Shown: piece after piece, positions 6,115 through 52,815 of the stretch
Position numbering within the stretch: position 1 is the first letter of the stretch
Layout of the letters: each line of letters begins with the position of its first letter
Source: Stenotrophomonas sp. WZN-1
GTDB lineage: Bacteria > Pseudomonadota > Gammaproteobacteria > Xanthomonadales > Xanthomonadaceae
Direction: 5' to 3'
DNA: 64,000 bases
Assembly (NCBI RefSeq): GCF_002192255.1
Contig: NZ_CP021768.1
Span: 1,692,001 to 1,756,000, forward strand
Notes under the pieces: model-generated
The model's input: the letters and a program-made list of their open reading frames with translations, nothing else
Databases searched by the model: none
Told to the model about the DNA's origin: nothing
Position numbers and translations under genes: made by a program

Positions 6115-6212
6115 GGGGCGGTGTGGGTTGGCAGGACACGCCGTAAACCCGTCCATGGGGGCTCGATGGCGCCATCCATGGCGCCAACGGTCCTGCCAAC
6201 CCACACCGCCCC
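6115..6212 (+). repeat. Large multi-branched stem-loop, copy A
   Basis: Perfect 23-bp outer arms (6115-6137 and 6190-6212) enclose exactly 52 nt. The enclosed core holds hairpin 1 (CCCGT-CC-ATGGG) and hairpin 2 (TGGCGCCAT-CC-ATGGCGCCA). Same orientation as copies C and E. Confidence 0.88.
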
Positions 6213-6239
6213 ACCCCTGACAATTTCCTGCTGCTGTTG

Positions 6240-6263
6240 GTAGGTGTCGACCTTGGTCGACAC
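6240..6263 (+). repeat. SMAG palindrome, GTGTCGACC class
   Basis: GTAG followed by GTGTCGACC, TT, GGTCGACAC. The same element occurs at 42694-42717 in island 2, in the same position relative to the stem-loop. Confidence 0.75.
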
Positions 6264-6287
6264 GATAGATCCACGTCATGCGTGGAT
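6264..6287 (+). repeat. SMAG-like palindrome, ATCCACG class (degenerate start)
   Basis: ATCCACG and CGTGGAT pair around TCATG; the leading motif reads GATAG instead of GTAG. It directly abuts the preceding element, as in island 2. Confidence 0.6.
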
Positions 6288-6329
6288 GAATCTTCATCGA
6301 AATTGATTATCTCGATATCTGTGAGATCT

Positions 6330-6353
6330 GAGCCGAGCATGGCTCGGCTCTAC
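6330..6353 (-). repeat. SMAG palindrome, GAGCCGAGC class, reverse orientation
   Basis: On the minus strand it starts GTAGAGCCGAGC and continues CATGCTCGGCTC. Same class as the element after ubiB at 12613. Confidence 0.7.
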
Positions 6354-6388
6354 AGAAATGCCGACAGATCGCAGAAATCTGTCGAAGG

Positions 6389-6565
6389 CGGGGTGGGTCC
6401 GGTTGCGGGAGTGTCCGCGGCATGGGCCCGAGGCATGCCTCGGGCGGGTTGGGCAGGACGCCAAACCCCGGTCTTGCCGTGTGCGCAGGACAGCGCACAC
6501 GAGCAAGCCGCGGCCAAGCCCCCATGGATGGGTTCACGGCGTCTCCCGCAACCGGACCCACCCCG
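6389..6565 (-). repeat. Large multi-branched stem-loop, copy B, with expanded hairpin
   Basis: 23-bp outer arms (6389-6411 and 6543-6565) in reverse orientation to copy A. The enclosed part is about 131 nt, not 52: hairpin 2 has an insert of about 79 extra nt at its tip. That insert carries its own hairpins, GTGTGCGC/GCGCACAC nested in CTTGC/GCAAG, and the perfect palindrome GCCCGAGGCATGCCTCGGGC. The outer arms are almost the same as those of copy C. Confidence 0.82.
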
Positions 6566-6687
6566 GCTACCCTCAGGAAACCAGCTTCTGCTGTTGCTTG
6601 GGCTCTTGCTGTGGCCGTTGCCTCTGCGGGTGCAGGGCGCCGCCCTGCCGAACTAAACTACCCGCCGTTGTCCCTGCAGGATTGCCC

Positions 6688-7584
6688 ATGTTCGATACCT
6701 CGCCCCAGCTCGATTGCGCCGGCCGCATCCTGCGCCTCGACCGCGCCCGGGTCATGGGCATCGTGAACGTCACCCCGGACTCGTTCTCCGACGGCGGCGC
6801 GCACGACACCACCGAGTCGGCGGTCGCCCATGGCCTGAAGCTGGTCGAGGAGGGGGCGGACCTGCTCGATGTTGGCGGCGAATCGACCCGCCCGGGCGCC
6901 GCACCGGTATCGGTCGAGGAAGAGCTGCGCCGGGTGATTCCGGTGATCAAGCAACTGGCCGCCCGTACCCAGGTTCCGATCAGCATCGACACCTTCAAGC
7001 CGGAAGTGATGCGTGCGGCCGTGGCCGCCGGCGCGGGCATGATCAATGACATCCATGGCCTGCGCCAGGAGGGCGCGCTGGACGCCGCCGCTGAAGCCGG
7101 CGTGCCGGTGGTGCTGATGCACATGCAGGGCGAACCCGGTCACATGCAGGCCGATCCGCACTACGACGACGTGGTTGCGGAGGTACACGGTTTCCTGGTG
7201 CAGCGCCTGTTCGCTGCGGAAATGGCCGGTATCGCCAAGAAGAACCTGCTGGTCGATCTCGGTTTCGGCTTCGGCAAGACCACTGCCCACAACATGACCC
7301 TGCTGGCGCGCTCGGAACGCTTCCTGGAACTGGGCGTGCCGATGCTGGCCGGCCTCTCGCGCAAGCGCAGCCTCGGTGAACTGACTGGACGCGACCTGCC
7401 GTCCGAACGGGTAGCGGCCTCGGTGGCCGCGCATCTGATCGCGGTACAGCGCGGCGCCCGCATCGTTCGCGTGCATGACGTGGCGGCCACCGTCGATGCG
7501 TTGAAGGTCTGGCAGGCGGTCGACGCGGTGCCCGTGCCGCGCGCCGACGCCACGCCGACGATCCGTTGGCCGGGCGAAGACTGA
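6688..7584 (+). CDS. folP: Dihydropteroate synthase
   Basis: 298 residues from ATG 6688; longer in-frame starts would lie inside the palindromic island. It joins p-aminobenzoate to the pterin pyrophosphate to make dihydropteroate in folate synthesis, and is the sulfonamide target. TIM-barrel motifs are in place: [11 protein letters not shown] near residue 26, [42 protein letters not shown] and the final [15 protein letters not shown]. The stop TGA overlaps the ATG of miaA by one base. The usual neighbours ftsH (upstream) and glmM differ: ftsH is present, but glmM does not follow. Confidence 0.95.
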
Positions 7585-8537
7585 TGGGCATCGACCGGCG
7601 GCCGCTGGCGATCGCCGTGATGGGGCCGACCGCCAGTGGCAAGACCGCGACCGCGATTGCCCTGGCACAGCAGCTGGACGGCGAAATCGTCAGCGTCGAT
7701 TCGGCGCTGGTGTACCGCCACCTGGATATCGGCTCGGCCAAGCCCGATGCGGCCGAGCGCGCGCAGGCACGGCACCATCTGCTGGATCTGCGCGATCCCT
7801 GGCAGACCTACTCGGCGGCCGAATTCGCCGCTGATGCCGGCCGGGTCGTGGCCGACATCGTGGCGCGCGGCAGGACACCGATCCTGGCCGGTGGCACCGG
7901 CCTGTACTTCCGCGCACTGCTGCAGGGCCTGTCGCCGATGCCGGAGGCCGACCCGGGGATGCGTGCGACGTTGGCCGCCGAAGCCGCCGAACGCGGCTGG
8001 GCGGCACTGCATGCCGAACTGGCCAGGGTCGATCCGGCGGCGGCCGCACGCATCCATGCCACCGACCCGCAGCGCATCCAGCGGGCACTGGAGGTCTATC
8101 GCCTGACCGGTACCCCCATCACTGAATGGCAGCGCCGGCCGGGTGTGGCGCCATTGCCGGTGCGCACGCTGAAGCTGATCCTGGCCCCGCGTGACCGCGC
8201 GCTACTGCACCAGCGCATCGAGGCGCGCTTCGACGCCATGCTGGCGCAGGGCTTTCTGGACGAGGTACGGGCGCTGAGGGCGATGCCCGAAATGGCCGCC
8301 GTGGAGGCGCCGTTGGACCTGCCAGCGGTGCGGGCGGTCGGCTATCGCCAGGCCTGGGAGCACCTGGACGGGGAGGGCGATGCCGCCCGTTTCCGTGACA
8401 AGGCGATCTTCGCCACCCGCCAGCTGGCCAAGCGTCAGCTGACCTGGCTGCGCGGCGAGCTTGATGCGCGCTGGTTCGACCCCCATATCGACCAGGAGCG
8501 CTTGGCCGGCGCGGTGTCGGCCTTCGTCGCACGCTGA
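7584..8537 (+). CDS. miaA: tRNA dimethylallyltransferase MiaA
   Basis: 317 residues from ATG 7584, which overlaps the folP stop (TGATG). It transfers an isoprenyl group from dimethylallyl diphosphate to A37 of tRNAs that read UNN codons. The P-loop GPTASGKT lies near residue 14, followed by [18 protein letters not shown], and the later [19 protein letters not shown] and [12 protein letters not shown] motifs are typical. An ATG at 7566 would give 6 more residues, but the overlap start is preferred. hfq follows 96 bp downstream, the conserved miaA-hfq-hflX order. Confidence 0.95.
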
Positions 8538-8633
8538 ACCCCCGCCAGCCGTGTAACATCATCGGTCGGCGGGCGGCTCGGGGGCCGTGGCAACCGTCGG
8601 CAACCCAATAAGAACAATAATCAGGAGTGTGCA

Positions 8634-8909
8634 ATGTCCAAGGGGCAATCGCTGCAGGATCCTTTCTTGAACGCACTGCGGCGCGAACGCGTGCCGGTTT
8701 CGGTGTACCTGGTGAACGGCATCAAGCTGCAGGGCACGATCGAGTCGTTCGACCAGTTCGTGGTCCTGCTGCGCAACACGGTCAGTCAGATGGTCTACAA
8801 GCACGCCATTTCCACGGTGGTTCCGGCACGCAATGTGAAGGTCGGTCCGGGCGGTGGTTATGTGCAGTCGGGTGAAGGTGGTCAGGCAGGTGATGAAACA
8901 GACGAGTAA
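8634..8909 (+). CDS. hfq: RNA chaperone Hfq
   Basis: 91 residues. Hexameric Sm-like protein that pairs small RNAs with mRNAs. The Sm1 part ([30 protein letters not shown]) and the Sm2 motif ([12 protein letters not shown], the YKHA box) are complete. The C-terminal tail is short, Gly-rich and acidic, unlike the longer tail of E. coli Hfq. AGGAG lies 8 bp before the ATG. The 96-bp gap upstream may hold its own promoter. Together with csrA in this window it gives two global post-transcriptional regulators. Confidence 0.97.
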
Positions 8910-8923
8910 TACCGGAGCGGTGA

Positions 8924-10234
8924 ATGTTTGACCGCTCGAAAAAGGGCGAACACGCCCTGCTGATCCAGCCCCATTTCGGCAAGCTGGAAGACGATGTGCT
9001 TGAAGAGTTCGGTGATCTGGCCCGCTCGGCCGGGGCCAGCATCGCCGCGACGATCACCGCGCGGCTGGATCGTCCGAATCCGTCGACCCTGATCGGCAGC
9101 GGCAAGCTGGACGAGATCAAGGCCGCGGCCGATGCCAGCGGTGCCGACCTGATCCTGGTCAACCATGCGTTGAGCCCGGGCCAGGAGCGCAACCTGGAAC
9201 GCTTCCTCGAGCGCCGGGTGATCGACCGTACCGGCCTGATCCTGGACATCTTCGCCCAGCGTGCGCACAGCCATGAAGGCAAGCTGCAGGTCGAGCTGGC
9301 GCAGCTGCGTCACCTGGCCACGCGGCTGGTGCGTGGCTGGACCCACCTGGAGCGCCAGCGCGGCGGTTCGATCGGGCTGCGCGGCCCGGGTGAAACCCAG
9401 CTGGAAACCGACCGCCGCCTGCTGCAGAAGCGGGTCGAGCAGCTGCAGAAGCGCCTGGAAAAGGTGGAAGTGCAGCGCACCCAGATGCGCCGTGCGCGCG
9501 TGCGCAGCGAACTGCCGCGTGTCGCCCTGGTGGGCTATACCAATGCCGGCAAATCGACCCTGTTCAACGCCATGACCGGCGCTGAGGCCTACGCCGCCGA
9601 CCAGCTGTTCGCAACGCTGGATCCAACCGTGCGCCGCATCGCGGTGCCGGGCGGCAACGTGGTGCTGGCCGACACCGTCGGCTTCGTCCGTGATCTGCCG
9701 CATGATCTGGTCGCCGCGTTCCGCTCGACCCTGTCCGAGGCGCGCGAGGCCGATTTCCTGCTGCACGTGGTCGATGCTGCCGATCCGCACCGCGAGGAGC
9801 GCATCGCCCAGGTGGACGAGGTGCTGACCGCAGTCGGTGCCGGTGACCTGCCGCAGCTGCTGGTGTTCAACAAGATCGACCGCATCGACGGTGCCGACGT
9901 CCGCCACGATGGCCAGGATGGCGTGCCCGACGAGTCGCGTCGTGAGCGCGTCTGGATTTCCGCGCGTGACGGGCAGGGCCTTGAGCTTCTGCAGGCAGTG
10001 CTGGGCAAGCGCCTGGGCCTGCAGCACGTGACCGGTGAACTGCGCCTGCCGCCGGATGCCGGCCGCCTGCGTGCGCGCCTGCACCAGCTGGAAGTGATCC
10101 GCAGCGAACAGGCCGATGAAGAGGGCTGGCTGCTGCAGGTGGACCTGCCGATCGCCGAAGCCGAGAAGCTGGCCGCCAGTGCCGATGGCGCGCCGATCCG
10201 GGCGCTGCTGCCGGAGAAACTGCCGGAGTGGTGA
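8924..10234 (+). CDS. hflX: Ribosome-associated GTPase HflX
   Basis: 436 residues, 14 bp after hfq and probably in the same operon. HflX binds the 50S subunit and splits or rescues stalled ribosomes. The N-terminal HflX domain (GSGKLDEIKAAADASGADLILVNHALSPGQERNLE) is followed by a coiled coil with the RGPGETQLETDRR motif and the G domain: G1 GYTNAGKST near residue 204, G3 DTVGFVRDLP and G4 NKID. The C-terminal domain is also present. hflK and hflC, which follow hflX in E. coli, are not next to it here. Confidence 0.94.
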   Translation: MFDRSKKGEHALLIQPHFGKLEDDVLEEFGDLARSAGASIAATITARLDRPNPSTLIGSGKLDEIKAAADASGADLILVNHALSPGQERNLERFLERRVIDRTGLILDIFAQRAHSHEGKLQVELAQLRHLATRLVRGWTHLERQRGGSIGLRGPGETQLETDRRLLQKRVEQLQKRLEKVEVQRTQMRRARVRSELPRVALVGYTNAGKSTLFNAMTGAEAYAADQLFATLDPTVRRIAVPGGNVVLADTVGFVRDLPHDLVAAFRSTLSEAREADFLLHVVDAADPHREERIAQVDEVLTAVGAGDLPQLLVFNKIDRIDGADVRHDGQDGVPDESRRERVWISARDGQGLELLQAVLGKRLGLQHVTGELRLPPDAGRLRARLHQLEVIRSEQADEEGWLLQVDLPIAEAEKLAASADGAPIRALLPEKLPEW

Positions 10235-10235
10235 G

Positions 10236-10259
10236 GTAGCGCCGGGCCACGCCCGGCCG
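10236..10259 (+). repeat. SMAG palindrome, GCCGGGC class
   Basis: GTAGCGCCGGGC-CAC-GCCCGGCCG, starting 2 bp after the hflX stop. It sits at the 3' end of the miaA-hfq-hflX transcript and may stabilise or end it. Confidence 0.7.
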
Positions 10260-10331
10260 CTGCCATCGCGGCGGCCCGCGACATCAACCAGTCATCTGCG
10301 GTACAACGGGCAGATTCTTCACCCCACCATC

Positions 10332-10832
10332 ATGCCGATGTCCATTCCCACCGACGCCGATCTCAATGCCCAGTCCACGGTGCTCGGGCTGCGCCTGCAA
10401 CAGGCCTCGCTGCAGCTGGTCACCGCCGAAAGCTGCAGTGGCGGCTGGATCGCCAAGTGCATGACCGACATCGCCGGTTCCTCGGCGTTCTTCGACTGCG
10501 GCATGGTGGTCTACAGCTACGAGGCCAAGCAGCGCCTGCTGGGCGTACGTGCGCAGACCCTGGAGCAGTTCGGTGCGGTCAGCCGCGAAACCGTGCTGGA
10601 GATGGTGTCCGGTGCACTGGTCAATTCCGGTGCCGGCATCGCCGTTGCAGTGACTGGCATCGCCGGTCCCGGCGGAGGCAGCCCGGACAAGCCGGTCGGC
10701 AGCGTCTGGATTGGCTGGAAGCGCCGGGGCGGCTATGCGCGCGCCGAGCTGTTCCGGTTCGAAGGCGACCGCGAAGCCGTCCGCCGGCAAACCGTGGCGG
10801 CGGCATTGCGCGGTATCGACGCCCAGCTGTGA
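10332..10832 (+). CDS. pncC: Nicotinamide-nucleotide amidohydrolase (CinA C-terminal family)
   Basis: 166 residues starting at ATG 10332 or 10338 (MPMSIP/MSIP); neither has a strong ribosome binding site. It matches the stand-alone CinA C-terminal domain (YgaD/PncC), which deamidates nicotinamide mononucleotide to nicotinate mononucleotide in NAD recycling. The motifs TAESCSGGWIAKCMTDIAGSSAFFDCGMVVYS and AVTGIAGPGGGSPDKPVGSVWIG are diagnostic. In many proteobacteria this gene lies next to recA and shares the SOS locus; here it is 2 kb upstream of lexA. Confidence 0.92.
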   Translation: MPMSIPTDADLNAQSTVLGLRLQQASLQLVTAESCSGGWIAKCMTDIAGSSAFFDCGMVVYSYEAKQRLLGVRAQTLEQFGAVSRETVLEMVSGALVNSGAGIAVAVTGIAGPGGGSPDKPVGSVWIGWKRRGGYARAELFRFEGDREAVRRQTVAAALRGIDAQL

Positions 10833-10863
10833 CATGCTGCTCCGGTAATCGTCCGGAGCACGC

Positions 10864-12549
10864 ATGATGTGGGAAACGCTGGGCACGGTCCGTGACCTGG
10901 GCCGACTGCAGGAAATCGCCGTCGTCCTGATCCGCTATGGCTTCGGCGATGTGGTGCGGCGCATCGGCCTGGCCAGCACGCTGGAGCGGGCAGGGCGCCT
11001 GCTGCACTGGAACGAGGAGCGGCAGGAACTGCTGCGGATGACTGCGCCGGTGCGTGTGCGCAGCGCGATGCAGGATCTCGGTCCGACCTTCGTCAAGCTC
11101 GGCCAGGTACTGGCGACGCGCGTCGACCTGCTGCCGCCGGAATGGATCGCCGAGCTCTCCGAGCTGCAGAACGCGGTGCCGGCGCTGCCGTATGCGGATA
11201 TCCGTGAGCAGCTCGAAGCCGACATTGGCGCATCGCCTGCAGAGGTGTTCGCCTTCCTCGATGAAACCCCGATGGCTGCCGCCTCTCTGGCGCAGGCCCA
11301 TCGTGCGCGCCTGCATGATGGTCGCGAGGTGGTACTGAAGGTGCGGCGCCCCGGCATCCGCGATGTGGTCGAGGCCGACCTGCGGCTACTGGCCCGTCTG
11401 GCCGAGATCGTCGAGGCGCGCTTGCCGGACCTGCGCCGCTATCGCCCGGCCGAGGTCGTGCAGCAGTTCACCGTATCGCTGCGCCGTGAACTGGATTTCG
11501 CCGCCGAATGCCGCAATGCCGAGCGCATCGCGCGCAACTTCAAGGGCCGCGACGACATCCTGATTCCCGACGTGCATTGGCAGTGGACCTGCGAAAGCCT
11601 GAACGTGCAGGCTTTCGTCGACGGCATTCCGGCGCGCGATCTTGCCGGCGTCGACGCGGCAGGCCTGGACCGGCGCGAGCTGGCACGGCGTGGTGCCGAC
11701 ATCGTGCTGAAGATGGTGCTGGAGGACGGCAGCTTCCATGCCGACCCGCACCCCGGCAACATCATCTACCTGCGTGACGGCCGCATCGGCGTGATCGATT
11801 TCGGCATGGTCGGCGCGCTGTCTGAAGTGCGCCGCTTCCAGGTCGCGCAGCTTCTGCACGGGCTGGTCGAACAGGATCCGCAGGGCGTGGCCGACGTGCT
11901 GCTGGACTGGGCCGGCGGTGTGGAAGTGGACGAGAACCGGCTTCAGCACGACATCAGCCAGTTCGTCGACCAGTACCGTGGCGTGCCGCTGAAGGACCTG
12001 CGCATCGGCCTGATGCTGGGCGACATCACCCAGTTGCTGCGCAGTTACAGCCTGACCCTGCCGGCCGACCTGGCGTTGATGATCAAGGCGTTCCTGACCC
12101 TGGAGGGCATGGGCCGCCAGTTGGACCCGGATTTCGACATGGCCAGTGCTGCGCGCCCGTTCCTGGAGCGGGTAGTGCTGCAGCGCTATGCGCCCAAGGC
12201 GCTGCTCAAGCGCGGCCGGCGCAGCCTGCTGGGCCTGGTCGACTTCGCCGGTGAGTTGCCCCGCGACCTGCGCAAGCTGGTCCAGGCGGCGCGCCGGGGA
12301 CGCCTGCAGTTGAAGGTGGAAACCAGTGCATTGGAGGGCTTCGGCGAGCAGGTCAACCGCGCCGCGAACCGGCTGGTGATGGGCATCGTCACCGCCGCAT
12401 TGATCATCGGCTCGTCGATCGTGATGCACAGCGTTGGTGGGGTTTCCAGCCGCTGGTTGCTGGCGCTGGGCGTGTGCGGTTTCATCGGCGCCGGCTTCTG
12501 CGGCGTGTGGATCCTGTTTTCGATATGGAGAAGCGGTAAGCACACGTAG
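10864..12549 (+). CDS. ubiB: UbiB/ABC1 family atypical kinase
   Basis: 561 residues. UbiB is an atypical kinase/ATPase needed for ubiquinone biosynthesis. The KxGQ signature (FVKLGQVLATR) and the ASLAQAHRA loop are visible in the N-terminal half, the catalytic part FHADPHPGNIIY and DFGMVG in the middle, and two C-terminal membrane segments (about 505-525 and 530-553). The gene starts ATGATG, so the first Met may be either. It is not near other ubi genes here; a general ABC1-family protein with another lipid role is possible. Confidence 0.88.
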   Translation: MMWETLGTVRDLGRLQEIAVVLIRYGFGDVVRRIGLASTLERAGRLLHWNEERQELLRMTAPVRVRSAMQDLGPTFVKLGQVLATRVDLLPPEWIAELSELQNAVPALPYADIREQLEADIGASPAEVFAFLDETPMAAASLAQAHRARLHDGREVVLKVRRPGIRDVVEADLRLLARLAEIVEARLPDLRRYRPAEVVQQFTVSLRRELDFAAECRNAERIARNFKGRDDILIPDVHWQWTCESLNVQAFVDGIPARDLAGVDAAGLDRRELARRGADIVLKMVLEDGSFHADPHPGNIIYLRDGRIGVIDFGMVGALSEVRRFQVAQLLHGLVEQDPQGVADVLLDWAGGVEVDENRLQHDISQFVDQYRGVPLKDLRIGLMLGDITQLLRSYSLTLPADLALMIKAFLTLEGMGRQLDPDFDMASAARPFLERVVLQRYAPKALLKRGRRSLLGLVDFAGELPRDLRKLVQAARRGRLQLKVETSALEGFGEQVNRAANRLVMGIVTAALIIGSSIVMHSVGGVSSRWLLALGVCGFIGAGFCGVWILFSIWRSGKHT

Positions 12550-12573
12550 GCAGGTGCACGAAGTGCGCCTGTC

Positions 12574-12610
12574 GCGGTTCCACAGGAACCGCAGAATCGC
12601 GCAGCGATTC
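12574..12610. repeat. Two tandem small hairpins after ubiB
   Basis: GCGGTTCC-ACA-GGAACCGC (12574-12592) is followed by GAATCGC-GCA-GCGATTC (12594-12610), and a SMAG palindrome comes next. Three stem-loops in about 65 bp mark the 3' end of the ubiB transcript. No T-run. Confidence 0.6.
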
Positions 12611-12612
12611 CT

Positions 12613-12636
12613 GTAGAGCCGAGCCATGCTCGGCTG
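12613..12636 (+). repeat. SMAG palindrome, GAGCCGAGC class
   Basis: GTAG then AGCCGAGC, CAT, GCTCGGCT. Third stem-loop in the ubiB-lexA gap. Confidence 0.72.
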
Positions 12637-12734
12637 CTCTTGCCCAGGTCAGCCCAGCCGTTCGCGCGATTGCCTAGCACGGCTCGGCACGACAGATGTC
12701 GCCGTGTCGCTCCCAGCACTTGCACACCGGTCAG

Positions 12735-12753
12735 TTAGTAGTAATACTACTAA
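12735..12753. promoter_or_regulatory. LexA operator
   Basis: TTAGTAGTAATACTACTAA is a perfect 19-bp palindrome that fits the TTAG-N6-TACTA LexA motif known from Xylella and Xanthomonas. It ends 2 bp before the lexA ATG (12756), where a ribosome binding site would normally be. This implies autoregulation of lexA and either a leaderless message or an unusual start. Confidence 0.92.
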
Positions 12754-12755
12754 CC

Positions 12756-18140: not shown

Positions 18141-18344
18141 ATGTTGATCCTGACTCGCCGCGTCGGCGAAACCCTGATGATCGGAGACTCGGTGAGCGTC
18201 ACCGTGCTTGGCGTCAAGGGTAACCAGGTGCGTATCGGCATCACTGCGCCGAAGGACGTCGCTGTGCATCGCGAAGAGATCTACCAGCGCATCCAGCGTG
18301 GTGATGAAGCCGGCGGCACCGGTAGCGAAAATTCTGCCGAATAA
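18141..18344 (+). CDS. csrA: Carbon storage regulator CsrA (RsmA)
   Basis: 67 residues from ATG 18141, with GGAG 10 bp upstream. CsrA binds GGA motifs in mRNA leaders and controls carbon storage, motility, biofilm and virulence genes. The core [51 protein letters not shown] is complete, including Leu4 and Arg44-type RNA contacts. The C-terminal tail is Gly/Ser/Glu-rich. It lies between alaS and tRNA-Ser, the classic order. A GacA/UvrY-type regulator at 63472 could act on the same circuit through small RNAs that are not in the window. Confidence 0.96.
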
Positions 18345-42450: not shown

Positions 42451-42490
42451 GGGTACGGCAGGGCTGCGCCCTGCGCCCGCTACGAGCTGG

Positions 42491-42525
<35 letters not shown>

Positions 42526-42545
42526 AAGCTGGTTTCCTGAGGGAT

Positions 42546-42647
42546 GGCGGGGTGGGTCCGGTTGCGGGGGACGCTGCAAGTACGTCCATGTAAGCTCGGT
42601 CGCCGCATCCATGCGGCTCACGCCCCCGCAACCGGACCCACCCCGCC
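42546..42647 (+). repeat. Large multi-branched stem-loop, copy C
   Basis: Perfect 25-bp outer arms (42546-42570, 42623-42647) enclose exactly 52 nt. Hairpin 1 is TACGT-CC-ATGTA and hairpin 2 GCCGCAT-CC-ATGCGGC. Both differ from copy A by compensatory changes. Confidence 0.9.
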
Positions 42648-42693
42648 TTCGACAGATTTCCGCGATCTGTCGGAACGGCATGGACCGCTGTTG

Positions 42694-42741
42694 GTAGGTG
42701 TCGACCTTGGTCGACACAGTAGATTCACGCCATGCGTGGAT
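42694..42741 (+). repeat. Pair of SMAG palindromes in island 2
   Basis: GTAG-GTGTCGACC-TT-GGTCGACAC (42694-42717) is followed after one base by GTAGATTCACGCCATGCGTGGAT (42719-42741). The same pair, in the same order, is in island 1 at 6240-6287. Confidence 0.75.
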
Positions 42742-42785
42742 GCTTTTCGATCTCGATTCGAAATATTCGATTCCGATGAAGATTC

Positions 42786-42808
42786 ATCCACGCATGGCGT
42801 GGATCCAT
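42786..42808 (-). repeat. SMAG-like palindrome facing the previous pair
   Basis: ATCCACGCATGGCGTGGATC, the complement of the preceding ATCCACG-class element, so the two form an inverted dimer with a spacer of about 45 bp that is A/T-rich (ATTCGAAATATTCGATT). Confidence 0.65.
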
Positions 42809-42833
42809 CAGATCGCGGAAATCTGTCAGAGGT

Positions 42834-42929
42834 GGGGCGGTGTCGGAGTGCGGGGTGTCCGCGGCATGGATGCCGCGGCCAAGCCCCCATGGACGGGTTC
42901 ACGGCGTCCCCGCACTCCGACACCGCCCC
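42834..42929 (-). repeat. Large multi-branched stem-loop, copy D
   Basis: Perfect 22-bp outer arms (42834-42855, 42908-42929), extendable with a G-T pair to 25, enclosing exactly 52 nt in reverse orientation. On the minus strand hairpin 1 is CCCGT-CC-ATGGG and hairpin 2 CCGCGGCAT-CC-ATGCCGCGG. Confidence 0.9.
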
Positions 42930-43017
42930 GCCACCCCACGGAATGCGTGCTGTTGCTATTGCTCCGGCCGTTGCTTCGGCGGGTGCAGGGCGCAGCCCTG
43001 CCGAAAAACACACATAA

Positions 43018-45841: not shown

Positions 45842-45852
45842 CGGCGGGCCCC

Positions 45853-46359
45853 TCAGGGCCCGCCTAAGCCGCCGTTGAACTGCAGCTCGCTGAAGGTGTT
45901 GCTGGCCGGGTCGAACACCGCGCCCCAGAACTGCGCGCCGCCATCGCAGACGCGGATCGCTTCGCGGGCTGGATTGATGCCGCTGTCGTCGGGCAGGTGG
46001 AAGGCGTTGATGTAGATCAGCCGTTGGCCTGCGCTTTCGATGCCGACGTACTGACGGTCAAAGTCGAGCACCTTCGGCACCTGGGCTTCCAGCGAAGACA
46101 GTTTCGCTTCCAGCTGGTCGACCTGCTGCCGGCTGGGCGCCCAGTAGCCGCTGACCCGCCCGGCCTCGCGGCCGGGGCTGGGCCGCGAGCAAGTGTCGAG
46201 CACCTGCGCGGCAATGATCGGGCGGGTGACCACCCAGGATTGGCCGGTACGCTCGGCGGTCGGCACGCTGGCCGGGCCGCGCGTGGTGGTGCAGGCACCC
46301 AGAACGGCTGCGAGCGCGATCGCAGCCGTGGGCAGCAGCAGGCGGGTGCAGCGGTTCAC
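45853..46359 (-). CDS. Lipoprotein of unknown function
   Basis: 168 residues with a lipoprotein signal (lipobox LGAC, Cys23). The mature part has a short coiled-coil-like segment ([22 protein letters not shown]) and later an aromatic segment [28 protein letters not shown]. Its start overlaps the phoH stop by 4 bp (ATGA), so the two are probably translated together. The function is unknown. Confidence 0.7.
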
Positions 46360-47756
46360 AACACCTCCGAAGCGTAATCGGCCAGGCGCGAGCGTTCGCC
46401 ACGGCGCAGGGTGATGTGCGCACTATGCGGCCAGTTCTTGAAGCGATCCACCGCGTAGGTCAGGCCCGAGGTGGTCTCGGTCAGGTAAGGCGTGTCGATC
46501 TGCTCGACGTTGCCCAGGCAGACGATCTTGGTGCCGGGGCCGGCACGGGTGATCAGCGTCTTCATCTGCTTCGGGGTGAGGTTCTGTGCCTCGTCCAGGA
46601 TCAGGTAGCGCGACAGGAACGTGCGGCCGCGCATGAAGTTCATCGAGCGGATCTTGATGCGGCTGGCGAGCAGGTCGTTGGTGGCCTGGCGCCCCCACGT
46701 GCCGCCTTCCTGGTTGTGCGTGAGCACCTCCAGGTTGTCGGTCAGTGCGCCCATCCACGGCGTCATCTTCTCTTCTTCGGTGCCGGGCAGGAAACCGATG
46801 TCCTCGCCGACGCTGACCGTGGCGCGGGTCATGATGATCTCGCGGTAGCGCTGCTGGTCCATGGTCTGCGCCAGGCCGGCGGCCAGTGCCAGCAGGGTCT
46901 TGCCGGTGCCGGCGGTACCCAGCAGCGTGACGAAGTCGATCTCCGGGTCCATCAGTGCGTTGAGGGCGAAGTTCTGCTCGCGGTTGCGTGCGCTGATGCC
47001 CCACACGGCGTGGCTGCCGTGACGGAAATCATCGACCAGCGACAGCACCACCTTGCCATCGCCGACCACGCGGCTGACGCGCAGCTCGACTTCATCTTCG
47101 CCGGGCAGGTAGACGTACTGGTTCGGGTACCACTCCTCGCCATCCTGCGCCAGGATTTCGTAATGCGTGCGGCCCTTGTCGCTCCAGCTGCGCAGGTCGT
47201 CGCCGTGGCGCTTCCAGAAGTCTTCCGGCAGTTCGGTGGCGCCGGTGTAGAGCAGGCTGAAATCGTCCAGCGCGCGGTCGTTCTCGTAGTCCTCGGACAC
47301 GATGCCGGCGATGGCGGCCTTGATCCGCAGGTTGATGTCCTTGGAAACGAACACCACCGGCAGGTCCGGGGTTTCTTCCTTCAGGGCCAGGATCGCGCCG
47401 AGGATGGCGTTGTCCGGGATCACCTTGCCGAAGCTCTTGCCGGCGTCGAAATGGCTGGTCTGGAAGCGCAGCTTGCCGGCGCTCTGCTTGCCGCGCAGCT
47501 GCAGCCCATTGGGGCGCTGCAGCGGAATGCCGTCGGCCAGGTTGTCCAGGCCGGAGGCCTGCACCAGCTCATTGAGGAAGCGGCTCACCTGGCGGGCGTT
47601 GCGGCTCGCCTCGGAAGTGCCCTTCTTGCCGTTGTCCAGCTCCTCGATCACCTGCATGGGCAGGTAGACGTCGTGCTCCTCGAATTTGAACAGCGCGGTG
47701 GGATCGTGCATCAGCACGTTGGTATCCAGCACGTAGATGCGCTTGCCTCGGGTCAT
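46356..47756 (-). CDS. phoH: PhoH-family ATPase with N-terminal PIN domain
   Basis: 466 residues from ATG 47756 (MTRGKRIYVLDTNVLMHDP). The N-terminal PIN nuclease domain (YVLDTNVLMHD, PMQVIEELDNGKKG, VVFVSKDINLRIKA) is followed by an extra domain and the PhoH ATPase: Walker [12 protein letters not shown] near residue 300 and Walker B YLILDEAQNLTPKQMKTL. This is the PhoH2/PIN-PhoH type, a predicted helicase-nuclease for RNA. It is not known to be phosphate-linked in this form, and no Pho box was found. A gene overlap ties it to the lipoprotein downstream. Confidence 0.93.
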   Translation of the reverse strand: MTRGKRIYVLDTNVLMHDPTALFKFEEHDVYLPMQVIEELDNGKKGTSEASRNARQVSRFLNELVQASGLDNLADGIPLQRPNGLQLRGKQSAGKLRFQTSHFDAGKSFGKVIPDNAILGAILALKEETPDLPVVFVSKDINLRIKAAIAGIVSEDYENDRALDDFSLLYTGATELPEDFWKRHGDDLRSWSDKGRTHYEILAQDGEEWYPNQYVYLPGEDEVELRVSRVVGDGKVVLSLVDDFRHGSHAVWGISARNREQNFALNALMDPEIDFVTLLGTAGTGKTLLALAAGLAQTMDQQRYREIIMTRATVSVGEDIGFLPGTEEEKMTPWMGALTDNLEVLTHNQEGGTWGRQATNDLLASRIKIRSMNFMRGRTFLSRYLILDEAQNLTPKQMKTLITRAGPGTKIVCLGNVEQIDTPYLTETTSGLTYAVDRFKNWPHSAHITLRRGERSRLADYASEVL

Positions 47757-47840
47757 CGTCGATTCCTGGTTACGGACAGGGAAAAACCACCACGGCCTGC
47801 TGCAGGGCAGGGTGATGGCAGGCACAGTAGGCAGTGGGAC

Positions 47841-48320
47841 TCACTTGGACTGGGAGGCCTTCAGTTCGGCGAGAACGGCATCGGCATGGCCGGCAACCTT
47901 TACCTTGCGCCAGGACTGCACGATGCGGCTGTCGGGGGAAATCAGGAAGGTGCTGCGCTCGATGCCACGTACCTGCTTGCCGTACATGTTCTTCATCTTG
48001 ATCACGTCGAAGGCGCTGCACAGCGCTTCATCGCCATCGCTGACCAGCGGGAAGCTGAAGCCCTGCTTGGCACAGAAATTGTCGTGCGACTTCACCGAAT
48101 CGCGCGAGACGCCCAGCACGACCGCGCCGGCCTTCCTGAACTTCGGCAGCAGCGCGTTGAAGTCGATGCCTTCGGTGGTGCAGCCGGGGGTGCTGTCCTT
48201 GGGGTAGAAGTACAGCACCAGCCAGTGGCCGGCATAGTCGCCGAGGGTGGCCTGGTCGCCACCGGACAGCGCCAGTGGCAGGGAGAGGGTGGTGCTGTCC
48301 AGGGTATCGCCGTTGTTCAT
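47841..48320 (-). CDS. bcp: Thiol peroxidase Bcp/PrxQ (peroxiredoxin)
   Basis: 159 residues from ATG 48320. It reduces hydroperoxides with thioredoxin. The peroxidatic Cys47 lies in DSTPGCTTEG, but the +5 Cys of E. coli Bcp is replaced by Ile; the second Cys is Cys83 (HDNFCAKQGF), 36 residues later, which is the resolving-Cys arrangement described for Xanthomonas PrxQ. It lies between phoH and gcvR, and the gcvR-bcp adjacency beside dapA is the same in E. coli. Confidence 0.93.
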   Translation of the reverse strand: MNNGDTLDSTTLSLPLALSGGDQATLGDYAGHWLVLYFYPKDSTPGCTTEGIDFNALLPKFRKAGAVVLGVSRDSVKSHDNFCAKQGFSFPLVSDGDEALCSAFDVIKMKNMYGKQVRGIERSTFLISPDSRIVQSWRKVKVAGHADAVLAELKASQSK

Positions 48321-48399
48321 GAGGTCCTTCTGTCGAGCCTGGGTTCTTTCCAAGACAATTGCATGAAACGCCACGCGCCCGTGAGAGGCGCGCGAAAAA

Positions 48400-48960
48400 T
48401 CAGAATTTCATCGGGTCCATGATCGCGTCCAGGTTCAGGTGGTCGCAGAACTCAAGGAAATCGTCGCGCAGCGCGGCGATGTGCATGTTGGCCGGCACGC
48501 CGATGGTGACCTGTGCACTGAACATTTCCGCACCGGTCTGCATGGCGCGGTAGCGCGTGCTCTGCAGGTTCTCGATGGTGATGCCCTGGCGGTCGAAGAA
48601 GTCGGCCAGCTGGAACAGGATGCCCGGCTTGTCGGCGGCGATCACTTCGACGATGTACGGCAGCAGGTTGGACTGCGCCTGCTTGGCAGCGGTGCGGTAC
48701 CAGACCAGCTTCAGGCCCTCTTCGCGCTCCAGCCGGGTCAGCATCGCCTCGAGCTTGGCCACCGAGTCCCAGGAGCCGGTGGCCAGCGCGGTGACCGAGA
48801 CATCGCGGCCGACCGTGGCCAGGCGTGCGTCCACCAGGTTGCAACCGCTGTCGGCGATGCGGCGGGTGACGGACAGCAGGGGGGACTCCGGATGCGTCGT
48901 ATAGGCGTTGATCAGGAGGTGGTTTTCGCTCGGCGCGGGGCGCGTGGTGGTGTCGGTCAA
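48400..48960 (-). CDS. gcvR: Glycine cleavage system transcriptional repressor (GcvR-like)
   Basis: 186 residues if it starts at TTG 48960 (read as Met; TDTTTRPAP...); no ATG fits, so the start is moderately certain. The product has two tandem ACT domains, the first [33 protein letters not shown], the second [31 protein letters not shown], as in GcvR. In E. coli GcvR binds glycine and GcvA. It is divergent from dapA with 163 bp between starts, and bcp follows, as in E. coli (dapA, gcvR, bcp). Confidence 0.9.
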
Positions 48961-49123
48961 GGCGATTCCGGGTAATGCATGCGTTAGTCTGAATGCCCGC
49001 CAGAGGCGGGGATCCACCGGTGTCCAGCATACTTGCCCGTGCTTTCGCGCCGCAAGTAACATTCAGGTCGCCCCCAGCCTTTCGTGGCGGGCGTTTCCCT
49101 TCCCAGCCAAGAGCAGCACGTCC

Positions 49124-50017
49124 TTGTCCCTTTCCGGCCTCATCACCGCGCTGGCGACCCCGTTCCGGGCCGACGGCGCCCTCGATCCCGACGGTTGGCA
49201 GCGCCTGCTGCACCTGCAACTGGAAGGTGGCGTCCATGGCGTTGTCGTAGCCGGCTCGACCGGTGAAGCGGCGACCCTCACCGATGCCGAGTACGACCTG
49301 CTGCTGGCCAGCGCGGTCGAGCGCATCGGCGGCCGCATCCCGGTCATGGCCGGTACCGGCCTTTCGGGCACCGCCAAGACCATCGAACAGACCCGCCGTG
49401 CCGCCGCGCTCGGCGCCAGCCATGCGCTGGTGGTCACCCCGCCTTACGTGCGGCCGACCCAGGCCGGCCTGATCGCGCACTACCGTGCAGTTGCCGACCA
49501 GGGCGGGCTGCCGGTCGTGCTGTACAACGTGCCCGGCCGCACCGGTTGCGATATGCAGCCGGAGACCGTCGCCGAGCTGGCCAGCCACCCCAACATCGTC
49601 GGCATCAAGGAGGCGGTGGGCGACACCGGCCGGGTGCAGGCGTTGCTGGCCCTGCGCAGCCCGCAGTTCGCCGTGCTCAGCGGCGACGACGGTACGGCGG
49701 CGCGTTCGATCCAGGCCGGTATCGATGGCCTGATCTCGGTGGGTTCCAACGTTCTGCCGGGCGCCTACCGCCGGATGTGCGAACTGGCAGCCGCGCACGA
49801 TCACGAAGCCACCGGGTCGTGGGATGCGCGCCTGCATCCGTTCCATGATTTCTGTGGCGTCGAACCCAACCCGATCCCGGTCAAGGCGCTGCTGCGCCGC
49901 ATCGGCATCGGTCATGACCTGCGCCTGCCGCTGCTGCCGCTGTCGGCATCGCACCATGCGGCGGCCGACCATCTCGCCGGCGACATCGCCGCCCTCGAAG
50001 CCCTTTCCAGCCACTGA
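49124..50017 (+). CDS. dapA: 4-Hydroxy-tetrahydrodipicolinate synthase
   Basis: 297 residues from TTG 49124 (read as Met; [14 protein letters not shown]). It condenses aspartate semialdehyde with pyruvate, the first committed step of lysine and diaminopimelate synthesis. The TIM-barrel landmarks are [14 protein letters not shown], the GSTGEAATL loop, the Tyr in YNVPGRTG and the Schiff-base Lys in [10 protein letters not shown] (about residue 161). It is divergent from gcvR and followed by a BamC-like lipoprotein gene. Both divergent starts are TTG. Confidence 0.95.
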
Positions 50018-50049
50018 CCTTCCGTCTTGGTCTGATCCAGGAGATTCAC

Positions 50050-50565
50050 ATGCGTCAATCCGTTTCCACCGTCCGCGTGCTGTCCTATGCCCTGCTTGCA
50101 GTGGCCGTCGCCGCCGGCACCACCGGCTGCTTCAAGCGTGGCGTCAAGGGCGACTACGCCCTGGCCCCGGAAATGCGTCCGCTGGAAGTGCCGCCGGACC
50201 TGAACCTGCCCAACGCCACCACCGACACCAAGGTGCCGACACTGGCCTCGGCCACCAAGCCGGCCGCGCCGGTCGCCGCAGCGCCGGCGGTGGGCAACAC
50301 AGGTTTCACCATTGCCGGTGGCAAGGATGAAGCCTTCGCCAAGGTCGGTACCGCACTGGAAGGCGTGGAAGGCGTGACCATCGCCAGCCGCGCACAGCTG
50401 CTGGGCTCGTACGACGTGGCCTACGAAGGCAGCAACTTCCTGGTCCGCGTGGTGGCGGTCGATGCCGGCGCCTACATCTCCGCGGTCGACCCGCGTGGCC
50501 TGCCGGCCACCGCCGAAGCGCCGGTGAAGCTGATCGCCGCACTGAAGGCGAAGCTGGCCCAGTAA
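50050..50565 (+). CDS. BamC-like (NlpB-like) lipoprotein, shortened
   Basis: 171 residues with a lipoprotein signal (TTGC, Cys27). The mature N-terminus (KRGVKGDYALAPEMRPLEVPPDLNLPNA) matches the start of BamC/NlpB, an outer-membrane lipoprotein of the BAM complex, and the C-terminal part (FLVRVVAVDAGAYISAVDPRGLPATAEAPVKLIAALKAKL) resembles one BamC helix-grip domain. E. coli BamC has 344 residues with two such domains, so this is about half length. It follows dapA by 32 bp, as bamC follows dapA in E. coli. Whether it works in the BAM complex is inferred. Confidence 0.72.
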   Translation: MRQSVSTVRVLSYALLAVAVAAGTTGCFKRGVKGDYALAPEMRPLEVPPDLNLPNATTDTKVPTLASATKPAAPVAAAPAVGNTGFTIAGGKDEAFAKVGTALEGVEGVTIASRAQLLGSYDVAYEGSNFLVRVVAVDAGAYISAVDPRGLPATAEAPVKLIAALKAKLAQ

Positions 50566-50606
50566 GGGCCGGTAGGGTGGGTGTGGGCCTTGGTCCGCAC
50601 CCTCTG

Positions 50607-50675
50607 GTAGCGCCGGGCCATGCCCGGCGAGCATATAGCGCGATCACGGTTCCGCCGGGCATGGCCCGGCGCTAC
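50607..50675. repeat. Inverted dimer of SMAG palindromes, GCCGGGC class
   Basis: GTAGCGCCGGGCCATGCCCG... at 50607-50630 and its reverse, ending CGGCGCTAC, at 50653-50675, 22 bp apart. It can form one long hairpin or two. Lies between the lipoprotein gene and fdxA. Confidence 0.75.
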
Positions 50676-50680
50676 CGGAA

Positions 50681-50713
50681 ACGAAAAAGGGCGCCATGGG
50701 CGCCCTTTTTCGT
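50681..50713. terminator. Perfect two-way terminator between the lipoprotein gene and fdxA
   Basis: ACGAAAAAGGGCGCC and GGCGCCCTTTTTCGT, 15-bp arms with loop ATG; A5 and T5 runs make it functional on either strand. Confidence 0.92.
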
Positions 50714-50731
50714 TGCCGCAGCGGGCGCTTC

Positions 50732-51055
50732 TCAGCGCTCCAGCAGCTTCAGCTTGTCCGGCTTGCCGTCCCATTCGCCGGCGTCGGCGGGTGGGTCCTT
50801 GCGCACGGTCAGCACCGGCCACTCCTTCGCCAGCTCGGCGTTGAGGGCAACGAAGCCCTCCTGGCCCGCAGGAACGTCGTCCTCCGGGAAGATCGCATTG
50901 ACCGGGCACTCCGGCTCGCAGAGGGTGCAGTCGATGCACTCATCCGGGTCGATCACCAGGAAGTTCGGGCCTTCGTGGAAGCAATCCACGGGGCACACTT
51001 CCACGCAATCGGTGTGTTTGCACTTGATGCAGTTTTCGGTGACGACAAAGGGCAT
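50732..51055 (-). CDS. fdxA: Seven-iron ferredoxin FdxA
   Basis: 107 residues from ATG 51055 ([26 protein letters not shown]). The first cluster ligands are C-x2-C-x4-C-x3-C-P with a 3Fe-4S-type extra Cys, and the second is C-x2-C-x2-C-x3-C-P ([15 protein letters not shown]), as in 7Fe8S ferredoxins of the Azotobacter FdI type. It carries electrons in the cytoplasm. Its partner is unknown. It is monocistronic, with a strong two-way terminator after it. Confidence 0.94.
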
Positions 51056-51235
51056 GGGCTTGGGGGTGGATCGATTCCTGAACCCGCCAATTCTAGAACA
51101 GGTTGGCCCCCGGTGTCGGCGCGGGACGGAAAACGGGCGTCTGGCAGGCGCGGCCATTGGCGGCACGGCAGGCCTGTGCGACGCTGCGCGGCACCCGGTC
51201 CTGGTGGCCGGGCTCCCTTCCCAGCAGGATCATCC

Positions 51236-52660
51236 ATGTCCCAAGCCCAGTCCGGCACCGCCTCCCACGGTGGTGAAAACACAGCGTTCATCGTCCTGAT
51301 CAGTTGCGTGGCCACGCTTGGTGGGTTCCTGTTCGGCTTCGACAGTGGTGTCATCAACGGCACGGTTGATGGCCTGCGCCAGGCCTTCAACTCCAGCGAG
51401 GCGGCGCTGGGCTTCGAAGTCGCCTCGATGCTGCTGGGCTGCGCGATCGGTGCATTCCTGGCCGGTTGGTTGGGCGACCGCCTGGGGCGCCGTGGTGTCC
51501 TGATCGTGTCCGCGCTGATGTTCCTGGTTTCGGCGCTGGGCGCCGGTGCCGCCCATGCTTCCTGGCTGTTCATCGCGGCCCGCGTGCTGGGCGGCTTCGC
51601 GGTGGGGGCGGCCAGCGTGATGTCGCCGGCCTACATCGCCGAAGTCGCCTCGGCGCGCTATCGCGGCCGACTGGCCACGGTGCAGCAGATGGCGATCATC
51701 TGCGGCCTGTTCGCGGCCTTCCTCAGCAATTACCTGCTGGCCCGCGCCGCCGGCGCCTCGACCGAGCCCTTGTGGCTGGGCCATGAGGCCTGGCGCTGGA
51801 TGTTCTGGATGCAGGCGCTGCCGTCGGGGGTGTTCCTGCTGCTGTTGCTGCTGATCCCGGAAAGCCCGCGTTTCCTGGTGCTGAAGGGCCGCCAGGCGCA
51901 GGCGAGGGCGGTGCTGACGCGGCTGTACGGTGAGGTCGCCGCCACGGCCAAGCAGGCTGAGATCGAGGCCAGCCTGGCCCAGGACCAGCACAAGCCGCGT
52001 TTCGGCGACCTGCGCGACAAGGTCACCGGCAAGCTGCGCCCGATCCTCTGGGTGGGCATCGGCCTGGCCATGTTCCAGCAGCTGGTCGGCATCAATGTGG
52101 TGTTCTACTACGGTGCGGTGCTCTGGCAGGCAGTGGGCTTCTCGGAAAGCGATGCGCTGCTGATCAATGTGTTGTCCGGTGCACTGAGCATCGGTGCCTG
52201 CCTGCTGACGGTACTGCTGATCGACCGCATCGGGCGCAAGCCGCTGCTGTGGGTCGGCTCGGTCGGCATGTCGGTGGCGCTGGTGCTGATGGTGGTGGCG
52301 TTTGCCAGTGGCAGCCTGGTCGACGGGCGCCTGCAGCTGTCCGATGGCATGGGGCGGCTGGCGCTGGTCGCGGCCAACGTCTACGTGGTGTTCTTCAACA
52401 TGTCCTGGGGCCCGGTGATGTGGGTGATGCTGGGCGAGATGTTCCCCAACCAGATCCGCGGCCCGGCGCTGGCCGTGGCGGGGGCCGCGCAATGGACCTC
52501 GAACTTCGCGATCACCGTGACCTTCCCGATGCTGCTGGCCGGCATCGGCCTGGCTGGCGCCTATGGCATCTATGCGGTCGCGGCGATCCTCTCGATCTTC
52601 TTCGTGGTCCGCTACGTGCGCGAGACCAAGGGCAAGGAGCTGGAGCAGATGGAAGGCTGA
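51236..52660 (+). CDS. Sugar transporter of the MFS sugar-porter family
   Basis: 474 residues from ATG 51236 (MSQAQSGTASHGG). Twelve membrane segments with sugar-porter signatures: GFLFGFDSGVINGTVDGLRQAF, GDRLGRRG, the RYRGRLATVQQ loop, PESPRFLVLKGR, QQLVGINVVFYYG and DRIGRKPLLW, then PETKG-type end (RETKGKELEQME). It matches XylE/GalP-like proton-coupled transporters; the sugar cannot be told. It is alone in the region, followed by stem-loop copy E. Confidence 0.92.
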   Translation: MSQAQSGTASHGGENTAFIVLISCVATLGGFLFGFDSGVINGTVDGLRQAFNSSEAALGFEVASMLLGCAIGAFLAGWLGDRLGRRGVLIVSALMFLVSALGAGAAHASWLFIAARVLGGFAVGAASVMSPAYIAEVASARYRGRLATVQQMAIICGLFAAFLSNYLLARAAGASTEPLWLGHEAWRWMFWMQALPSGVFLLLLLLIPESPRFLVLKGRQAQARAVLTRLYGEVAATAKQAEIEASLAQDQHKPRFGDLRDKVTGKLRPILWVGIGLAMFQQLVGINVVFYYGAVLWQAVGFSESDALLINVLSGALSIGACLLTVLLIDRIGRKPLLWVGSVGMSVALVLMVVAFASGSLVDGRLQLSDGMGRLALVAANVYVVFFNMSWGPVMWVMLGEMFPNQIRGPALAVAGAAQWTSNFAITVTFPMLLAGIGLAGAYGIYAVAAILSIFFVVRYVRETKGKELEQMEG

Positions 52661-52710
52661 CGTCGTCTGGCTTCGGTTGCATTCCGTTGGCGCCTCGGCG
52701 TCATCGAGGG

Positions 52711-52815
52711 CGAAGGCGGGCAGCCCAAGCCGGGGCACGCCGTGAACCCATCCATGGGGGCTCGATGGCGCCATCCATGGCGCCAACGGTCCCGGCTTGA
52801 GCTGCCCCGCCTTCG
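52711..52815 (+). repeat. Large multi-branched stem-loop, copy E (solitary)
   Basis: Outer arms 52711-52736 and 52789-52815, about 26 bp with one bulge, one C-A mismatch and one G-T pair, enclosing exactly 52 nt. Hairpin 1 is CCCAT-CC-ATGGG; hairpin 2 is the same as in copy A. No terminal inverted repeat, no CAACAG tract and no partner copy. Confidence 0.85.

What the first reader, a model, noticed from the sequence alone, without database searches (positions are those of the whole stretch)
6115..52815. Family of large multi-branched stem-loops with a conserved 52-nt core and covarying arms
Five copies (A 6115-6212, B 6389-6565, C 42546-42647, D 42834-42929, E 52711-52815) share a plan: a 22-26 bp outer stem around two inner hairpins whose loops are always CC flanked by T/A (GTCCAT and ATCCATG). 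In A, C, D and E the enclosed part is exactly 52 nt. The outer arm sequences differ between copies but stay complementary. In hairpin 1, copy C has T-A and A-T where the others have two C-G pairs, and B and E have A-T where A, C and D have G-T. In hairpin 2, pairs 35-44, 31-48 and 30-49 change on both sides between A, C and D. Compensatory changes in both stems mean selection or a copying mechanism acting on structure, in DNA or RNA. I know no described element with this exact form, though I cannot search.
Basis: partly seen in the sequence, partly recalled or inferred. Interest (0 to 1): 0.88.

Follow-up and report, generated by a model that had tools for sequence, protein, structure and literature searches.

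The report
Paired RNA stem-loop repeats between genes
The stem-loops belong to a known but little-studied family of intergenic repeats (TwoAYGGAY RNA, called YPAL in Yersinia), present in this bacterium in more than a hundred copies, often as mirror-image pairs, and shaped as if to hold two docking loops for the regulator CsrA, which has not been tested here.

Summary
The stem-loops are real and far commoner than five. A covariance model of four copies finds 139 matches in this genome: 49 head-to-head pairs and 41 singles. A typical copy is a ~25-bp outer stem closing a three-way junction of two hairpins; arms differ but stay complementary.

The family is catalogued. Rfam's TwoAYGGAY model hits this genome 20 times, each time on one of these copies, opposite strand, one match over its cut-off. 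The Yersinia repeat YPAL carries the same head. Pairing is conserved on that opposite strand: outside Xanthomonadaceae it shows 62 G-U against 13 A-C. Read there, both loops show A-N-GGA, the CsrA/RsmA motif. csrA lies in this window.

Between closely related genomes, 20 of 61 elements had many arm pairs changed on both sides at once and 7 the head alone: block replacement, probably recombination between copies.

Most likely these are intergenic, RNA-level CsrA/RsmA-binding elements spread and homogenised as repeats. RNA-level selection is well supported, CsrA binding inferred, a genome-wide sponge speculative. New: strict head-to-head pairing, composite unit, turnover, and the YPAL-TwoAYGGAY link.

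The parts
6115..6212 (-). Copy A (core 6138-6189); strand given is the conserved, GGA-loop strand
6389..6565 (+). Copy B, with an 83-nt insert replacing the loop of the second hairpin; GGA strand +
   Evidence: (weak match 1698486-1698548)
6049..6649 (.). Composite unit around A and B: terminal hairpin 6049-6066, CAACAG-type run, A, REP-like repeats, B, terminal hairpin 6632-6649
42546..42647 (-). Copy C (core 42571-42622); GGA strand -
42834..42929 (+). Copy D (core 42856-42907); GGA strand +
42457..43002 (.). Composite unit around C and D: terminal hairpins 42457-42474 and 42985-43002, CAACAG-type run, REP-like repeats between C and D
52711..52815 (-). Copy E, single (core 52737-52788); GGA strand -
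18141..18344 (+). csrA (rsmA) gene, the proposed binding partner
   Evidence: NCBIfam NF002469 2.5e-33, TIGR00202 3.8e-27; Pfam PF02599 2.5e-26

Best explanation
Each stem-loop is a copy of the TwoAYGGAY/YPAL family. SHOWN: high copy number between genes; head-to-head pairs; a conserved three-way-junction head on varying but complementary arms; pairing conserved on the strand opposite to A/C/E as printed; A-N-GGA in the loops of that strand; replacement of arms and heads in blocks between close relatives. INFERRED: transcripts running out of neighbouring genes fold this strand; a CsrA/RsmA dimer clamps the two GGA loops, 23 nt apart; the long stem protects or marks the RNA end; copies are spread and kept alike by recombination between copies, which swaps both arms at once. 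In a pair, read-through RNA from either side includes one GGA-strand copy. SPECULATIVE: the copies together titrate RsmA.
For: Rfam TwoAYGGAY: 20 of 20 matches in this genome lie on copies, opposite strand, 1 over the cut-off; over the cut-off in 6 of 13 genomes asked, 0 of 14 control genomes; cmscan over the cut-off in 4 of 6 loci, each on an opposite-strand match of our model. YPAL/RU-2 holds the head. Strand: A-C 42 and G-T 18 in 117 own copies, 77 and 40 with G017, 62 and 13 in 62 copies outside Xanthomonadaceae, 39 and 9 with one per arm cluster; the other strand folds more stably in 90 of 117 and 51 of 62. GGA in the second loop in 61 of 62 wider copies, a loop not in the search pattern. 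csrA in the window. Independent prediction of two CsrA-type sites in TwoAYGGAY (PMC4333381 passages). Block replacement: 20 of 61 elements.
Against: No expression or binding data. 19 of 20 own TwoAYGGAY matches are below the cut-off, and cmscan did not list the family in the window, in 12 other loci or in L449. Our model found nothing in two loci that TwoAYGGAY hit weakly (L460, L461). Wobble pairs are rare even on the favoured strand (under 4%), and mismatches other than A-C/G-T are as common as A-C in the wider set (64 against 62). In retained orthologues A-C 10, G-T 7 and other 19 show no clear bias. Orientation to genes is loose: of 41 own singles the gene upstream on the GGA strand is co-directional in 27, and 5 of 49 pairs lie between divergent genes. 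No other gene of the Rsm system was searched.
Confidence: 0.5

Rival explanations
1. RNA-level 3'-end element without CsrA: the long stem blocks exonucleases or is cut by RNase III and so sets the stability of neighbouring mRNAs; the GGA loops serve something else.
For: Pairs are commoner than expected between convergent genes (21 of 49, against 27 of 133 element-free gaps) and rarer between divergent ones (5 of 49 against 46 of 133) (the background repeats one syntenic region in twelve relatives, so it is not independent). [quoted passage not shown]
Against: It does not explain GGA kept in 61 of 62 second loops whose stems vary freely.
Confidence: 0.25
2. DNA-level mobile palindrome only: the head is a recognition site for a mobilising enzyme acting on one single strand, and RNA is irrelevant.
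For: Repeat-like spread, intergenic; YPAL is described as a mobile repeat with TA duplications (PMC2759123 passages); head-to-head pairs as in REPINs. A strand bias of mismatches could also come from a folded single DNA strand.
Against: No copy in 33 RAYT loci; no transposase recognised by eye in ten intervals or between two enclosing pairs. A clean insertion with target duplication was not shown here.
Confidence: 0.18
3. Arms are kept complementary by hairpin-templated copying of one arm onto the other (template switching), without selection.
For: One own copy (L151 1507-1568) has lost the first hairpin and become a perfect palindrome. L092 against L266 has one paired change with the rest nearly identical. 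Switching is known to make arms alike (abstract of PMC8604942 in the listing).
Against: That process also inverts spacers (same abstract), yet 211 of 212 heads in two genomes keep the same polarity to G-rich arms. In retained orthologues 36 changes are one-sided and 5 paired. It predicts no A-C/G-T bias.
Confidence: 0.05

Closest known systems
TwoAYGGAY RNA (Rfam RF01731, clan CL00106)
   Same: Two hairpins with GGA loops inside an outer stem; model matches lie on our copies and strand. Second loop ATGGAT in 116 of 117 own copies.
   Different: Most own copies score below the cut-off. First loop fits AYGGAY strictly in 69 of 117. High copy number and pairing are not mentioned in the passages that I read.
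YPAL / RU-2, Yersinia palindromic sequence (about 168 bp)
   Same: Same head on the same strand: 79% over 53 nt with copy D; locus L448, 98% identical to RU-2, is hit by our model at 8.2e-15. Intergenic and multi-copy.
   Different: Arms unrelated; Yersinia copies have outer inverted repeats and TA ends that I did not find or test here. The YPAL paper is not held.
Ysr224 (Rfam RF02770)
   Same: Its consensus contains the head on the opposite strand (alignment).
   Different: 0 of 13 genomes over the cut-off; 119 weak matches in the own genome; 5 of 14 control genomes also ring weakly.
CsrB/CsrC, RsmX/Y/Z decoy RNAs (recalled)
   Same: GGA in hairpin loops, in pairs.
   Different: Those are single genes with many sites; here many dispersed copies with two sites each; no binding shown.
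REP/REPIN and TIR repeats with RAYT/TIRYT (PMC3733652, PMC3686654: passages and one section read)
   Same: Dispersed intergenic palindromes, head-to-head; such REPs lie in the same units.
   Different: No GTAG or CGTC foot at the element and no copy in 33 RAYT loci. The sequences of the K279a TIR families are in a figure that is not held, so identity with them is not formally excluded.

Membership tests
TwoAYGGAY (RF01731) | Score at or above the curated cut-off (43 bits) | tested here: inconclusive
   Own genome: 1 of 20 matches over; other genera over in Halopseudomonas, Saccharospirillum, Marinobacter, Haliea, Microbulbifer (the Haliea locus not listed by cmscan)
TwoAYGGAY (RF01731) | Two hairpins with AYGGAY loops | tested here: met
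   A-N-GGA in both loops of 117 intact heads (chosen partly by these loops); strict AYGGAY in 116 (second) and 69 (first); GGA in 61 of 62 wider second loops
TwoAYGGAY (RF01731) | Same strand and position as the model's matches | tested here: met
   20 of 20
YPAL / RU-2 | Homologous head | tested here: met
YPAL / RU-2 | Terminal inverted repeats with TA and TA target duplication | not tested
   Ends of a mobile unit were not defined here; feature taken from PMC2759123
CsrA/RsmA-binding RNA | GGA exposed in hairpin loops, at least two | tested here: met
CsrA/RsmA-binding RNA | Binds CsrA/RsmA | not testable with these tools
   No assay
REP/REPIN mobilised by RAYT | Copies flank a RAYT gene | tested here: not met
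   0 of 33 RAYT loci, a part of those listed
Intrinsic terminator | Run of T after the stem | tested here: not met
   TTTT within 20-45 nt after the core: GGA strand 4 of 117, other strand 6 of 117; six T: 0

The most novel reading that the evidence does not exclude
A distributed sponge: more than a hundred intergenic repeats per genome, paired so that read-through RNA from either side presents one copy, together offer hundreds of RsmA/CsrA sites and set the free level of the regulator in Stenotrophomonas and other gamma-Proteobacteria, a regulatory network carried and renewed by a dispersed repeat.
Probability: 0.2. Interest if true: 0.88.

Novelty: new variant of a known kind. Interest (0 to 1): 0.6.

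Why it matters
It joins entries that I found nowhere joined (no held paper has both YPAL and TwoAYGGAY): a Yersinia mobile repeat, a candidate structured RNA of unknown function, and a predicted CsrA-site RNA. If binding is confirmed, dispersed repeats become a genome-wide part of the Csr/Rsm network, and the question of what keeps such intergenic palindromes becomes testable copy by copy. It also warns that paired changes between dispersed copies may come from block replacement and should not be counted as independent compensatory events.

Tried and rejected
RAYT/TIR origin: the four Y1-transposase genes of this genome have GTAG-type REPs or a GGGGTCAGA repeat beside them, not this element; 33 RAYT loci (4 own, 29 of other genus genomes; a part of the matches listed) held no copy.

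Autonomous element: two own pairs enclose a gene, one KDPG-aldolase-like and one that I cannot name (judged by eye). In ten loci the reading frames near or between copies were judged by eye from their first residues; I recognised no transposase.

DNA-only palindrome correction was my first reading, because wobble pairs are rare (note). I gave it up when the wider set showed A-C far above G-T, with fixed polarity in two genomes and mostly one-sided recent changes. The G-rich left arm is not general: in the wider set 38 of 62 are G>C, 16 G<C, 8 equal.

Phage and plasmid collections: no match to copy C. Viral contigs: 3 stretches. Oligo searches of the paper library (12 oligos) listed five papers, unrelated by title and abstract start. 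Low-threshold Rfam hits to microRNA families are taken as chance matches to a long hairpin.

Gene calls behind the context counts are my own heuristic. The first ortholog script had a wrong pattern and found no heads; only its flank matching was used, and heads were taken.
Full report
NOTATION. 'EL' is one stem-loop element; EL '+' is the orientation in which A, C and E lie on the window's + strand. The conserved RNA strand turns out to be the reverse complement of EL '+'.

OBSERVATION. The five copies exist as described, with small corrections. Cores of A, C, D and E are exactly 52 nt. In B an 83-nt insert replaces the second loop.

COPY NUMBER AND LAYOUT. A covariance model (R1) of the cores of A, C, D and E with 6 bp of stem finds 139 matches at E <= 0.1 in the 4.51-Mb own genome. 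Matches closer than 1.5 kb form 49 groups of two, all '+' then '-', leaving 41 singles (19 '+', 22 '-'). 47 of the 49 pairs have starts 218-370 bp apart; two (1,014 and 1,120 bp) enclose a gene. In relative G017, 120 of 121 matches (the one on its second contig left out by me) form 45 '+-' pairs, 18 '+' and 12 '-'. Together 94 of 94 groups of two are '+-'. In copies outside Xanthomonadaceae, neighbours within 450 bp were '+-' 5, '++' 1, '--' 1; the table also shows one '-+' (L356).

THE COMPOSITE UNIT. Pairs whose surroundings I printed (every fourth, and A/B, C/D) sit in units of about 0.5 kb that are themselves near mirror images: a terminal block (in A/B and C/D the hairpin GGCAGGGCTGCGCCCTGC), often CAACAG-type runs, EL, a GACAG flank, other short palindromes, then the same in reverse. 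At the A/B locus downstream of ftsH, two ELs are found in the own genome and in L189-L192, L194, L195, L199, L200 and L202 (L190 is cut by its contig end; L193 is not among them, though its number lies in that run); one in L196; L197, L198 and L201 keep pieces; L203-L208, L193, L221-L225 show no EL; L226 and L227 could not be anchored. At further loci I read deletion derivatives in relatives; one leaves a single terminal hairpin (L317).

STRUCTURE AND COVARIATION. 117 of 139 matches have an intact head by my pattern; 22 (inserts, truncations, shifts) were left out. Of the 117, 106 have outer stems of 22-28 bp; 98 arm sequences are distinct; 2,794 of 2,890 pairs are Watson-Crick. At 11 of 18 inner pairs and 25 of 28 outer positions, pairing exceeds every column shuffle; shuffles ignore relatedness, and several of the other pairs hardly vary. 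With one representative per arm cluster (26 clusters at 70% identity, own and G017), 515 of 572 pairs are Watson-Crick. The refined fold is a three-way junction: H1 3-25, 4-24, 5-23, bulge 6-10, 11-22 to 14-19; H2 27-52, 28-51, 30-49 to 37-42.

WHICH STRAND. In EL+ orientation the non-Watson-Crick pairs include A-C 42 and G-T 18; with G017 A-C 77, G-T 40 of 4,991. In 62 copies outside Xanthomonadaceae they are A-C 62, G-T 13 and other 64 of 1,658; with one copy per arm cluster (34) A-C 39, G-T 9. That set came from 79 of 122 loci (43 set aside by title or as suspected contamination), with 95 head matches, 33 of which had no good stem by my score. On the other strand an A-C becomes G-U, so pairing seems conserved as RNA (or single-stranded DNA) of the reverse complement. 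Folding agrees: that strand is more stable in 90 of 117 own copies (21 the other way) and 51 of 62 others (11 the other way). There the loops read A-N-GGA (first) and A-T-GGA (second, 116 of 117), with GGA to GGA 23 nt (that set was chosen partly by these loops). Without the head filter, GGA is in place in the first loop of 124 and the second of 120 of 139 matches. In the wider set the second loop, not part of the search pattern, keeps GGA in 61 of 62.

IDENTITY. The loops recalled Rfam's TwoAYGGAY. Its model gives 20 matches in this genome at E <= 10; 20 of 20 lie on EL copies, opposite strand; one is over the cut-off; one of 14 control genomes rings below it. Over 13 genomes, 11 have a match at E <= 1 and 6 one over the cut-off; the Marinobacter and Saccharospirillum genomes have 46 and 48 matches; 0 of 14 controls. 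cmscan on six fetched loci reports it over the cut-off in four, each on an opposite-strand R1 match; R1 found something in 12 of the 14 TwoAYGGAY loci given (not in L460, L461). Against this, cmscan did not list the family in the window, in 12 other loci, in L449 or in L457, and most own copies score below the cut-off. PMC2864571 lists TwoAYGGAY as a probable RNA (table row). PMC4333381 reports two matches to a CsrA-site model and proposes CsrA binding, untested (passages). The RU-2/YPAL sequence printed in PMC2759123 (passages) contains the head; it is 98% identical over 167 bases to viral-contig locus L448, which R1 hits at 8.2e-15, and 79% over 53 bases to copy D. Rfam's Ysr224 contains the same head on the other strand, below its cut-off in 13 of 13 genomes. 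The YPAL paper itself is not held.

SPREAD. Matches occur in 31 of 41 genus genomes, own included, and in 37 of 149 family genomes, 15 of 54 genera (stricter filters).

TURNOVER. 58 of 90 own loci had both flanks matched in a fetched G017 locus, giving 61 comparable elements between flanks 90-97% identical. 20 had at least five arm pairs changed on both sides, 18 of them with at least seven head differences; 7 had the head changed with arms kept; 23 were retained; 11 were mixed or shifted by indels. For 12 of the 20, both versions have a relative of at least 0.90 identity elsewhere in their own genome's set; for 3 neither reaches 0.85. Retained ones show 36 one-sided and 5 paired changes in 575 pairs. 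So many paired differences arise in blocks, as expected of recombination between copies, while one-sided mutations accumulate and are later replaced or purged. The donor was not shown in any single case.

CONTEXT. By my own gene calls, pairs lie in convergent 21, tandem 23, divergent 5 of 49 gaps; element-free gaps of at least 60 bp in the window and twelve stretches of relatives are 27, 60, 46 of 133. Those twelve stretches are largely one syntenic region, so the comparison is indicative only.

MECHANISM. Strand, loops, spacing and range fit a CsrA/RsmA dimer site (the A-N-GGA consensus and dimer spacing are from memory), and csrA lies in the window. No experiment supports binding here. In a pair, read-through RNA from either side contains one GGA-strand copy. 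Whether the net effect is end protection, local regulation or titration cannot be told from sequence.

Noticed in passing
Copy B 6389-6565 and 7 other own matches: An insert beginning TTGCTCG, itself palindromic, sits in the loop of the second hairpin (8 of 139 matches); five other matches have a TTCGCAAGCAAAGCG insert in the first hairpin. Nested insertion into hairpin loops looks like a pattern.
   Followed up: partly
L151 1507-1568: A copy that lost its first hairpin and became a perfect palindrome, as template switching would make.
   Followed up: partly
L117 1787-1848: Another long perfect palindrome (27-bp arms, 8-nt loop), unrelated in sequence.
   Followed up: no
6049-6649 and 42457-43002: The units also hold GTAG-type REPs, CAACAG hexamer runs and terminal hairpins; in relatives a self-complementary GGGGTCAGA repeat, like that beside one own RAYT gene, appears in the middle.
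   Followed up: partly
L388, L399: Two contigs filed under a Klebsiella pneumoniae MAG carry the head; I suspect Stenotrophomonas contamination and set them aside.
   Followed up: no
L327 2356-2420: In a Methylomicrobium MAG a copy lies between genes that look like fliP and fliQ (judged by eye), inside what seems an operon.
   Followed up: no
5855-6040 (+): Small 61-aa reading frame between ftsH and copy A; no Pfam or NCBIfam match.
   Followed up: partly
L448: A viral contig carries a near-exact YPAL copy.
   Followed up: partly
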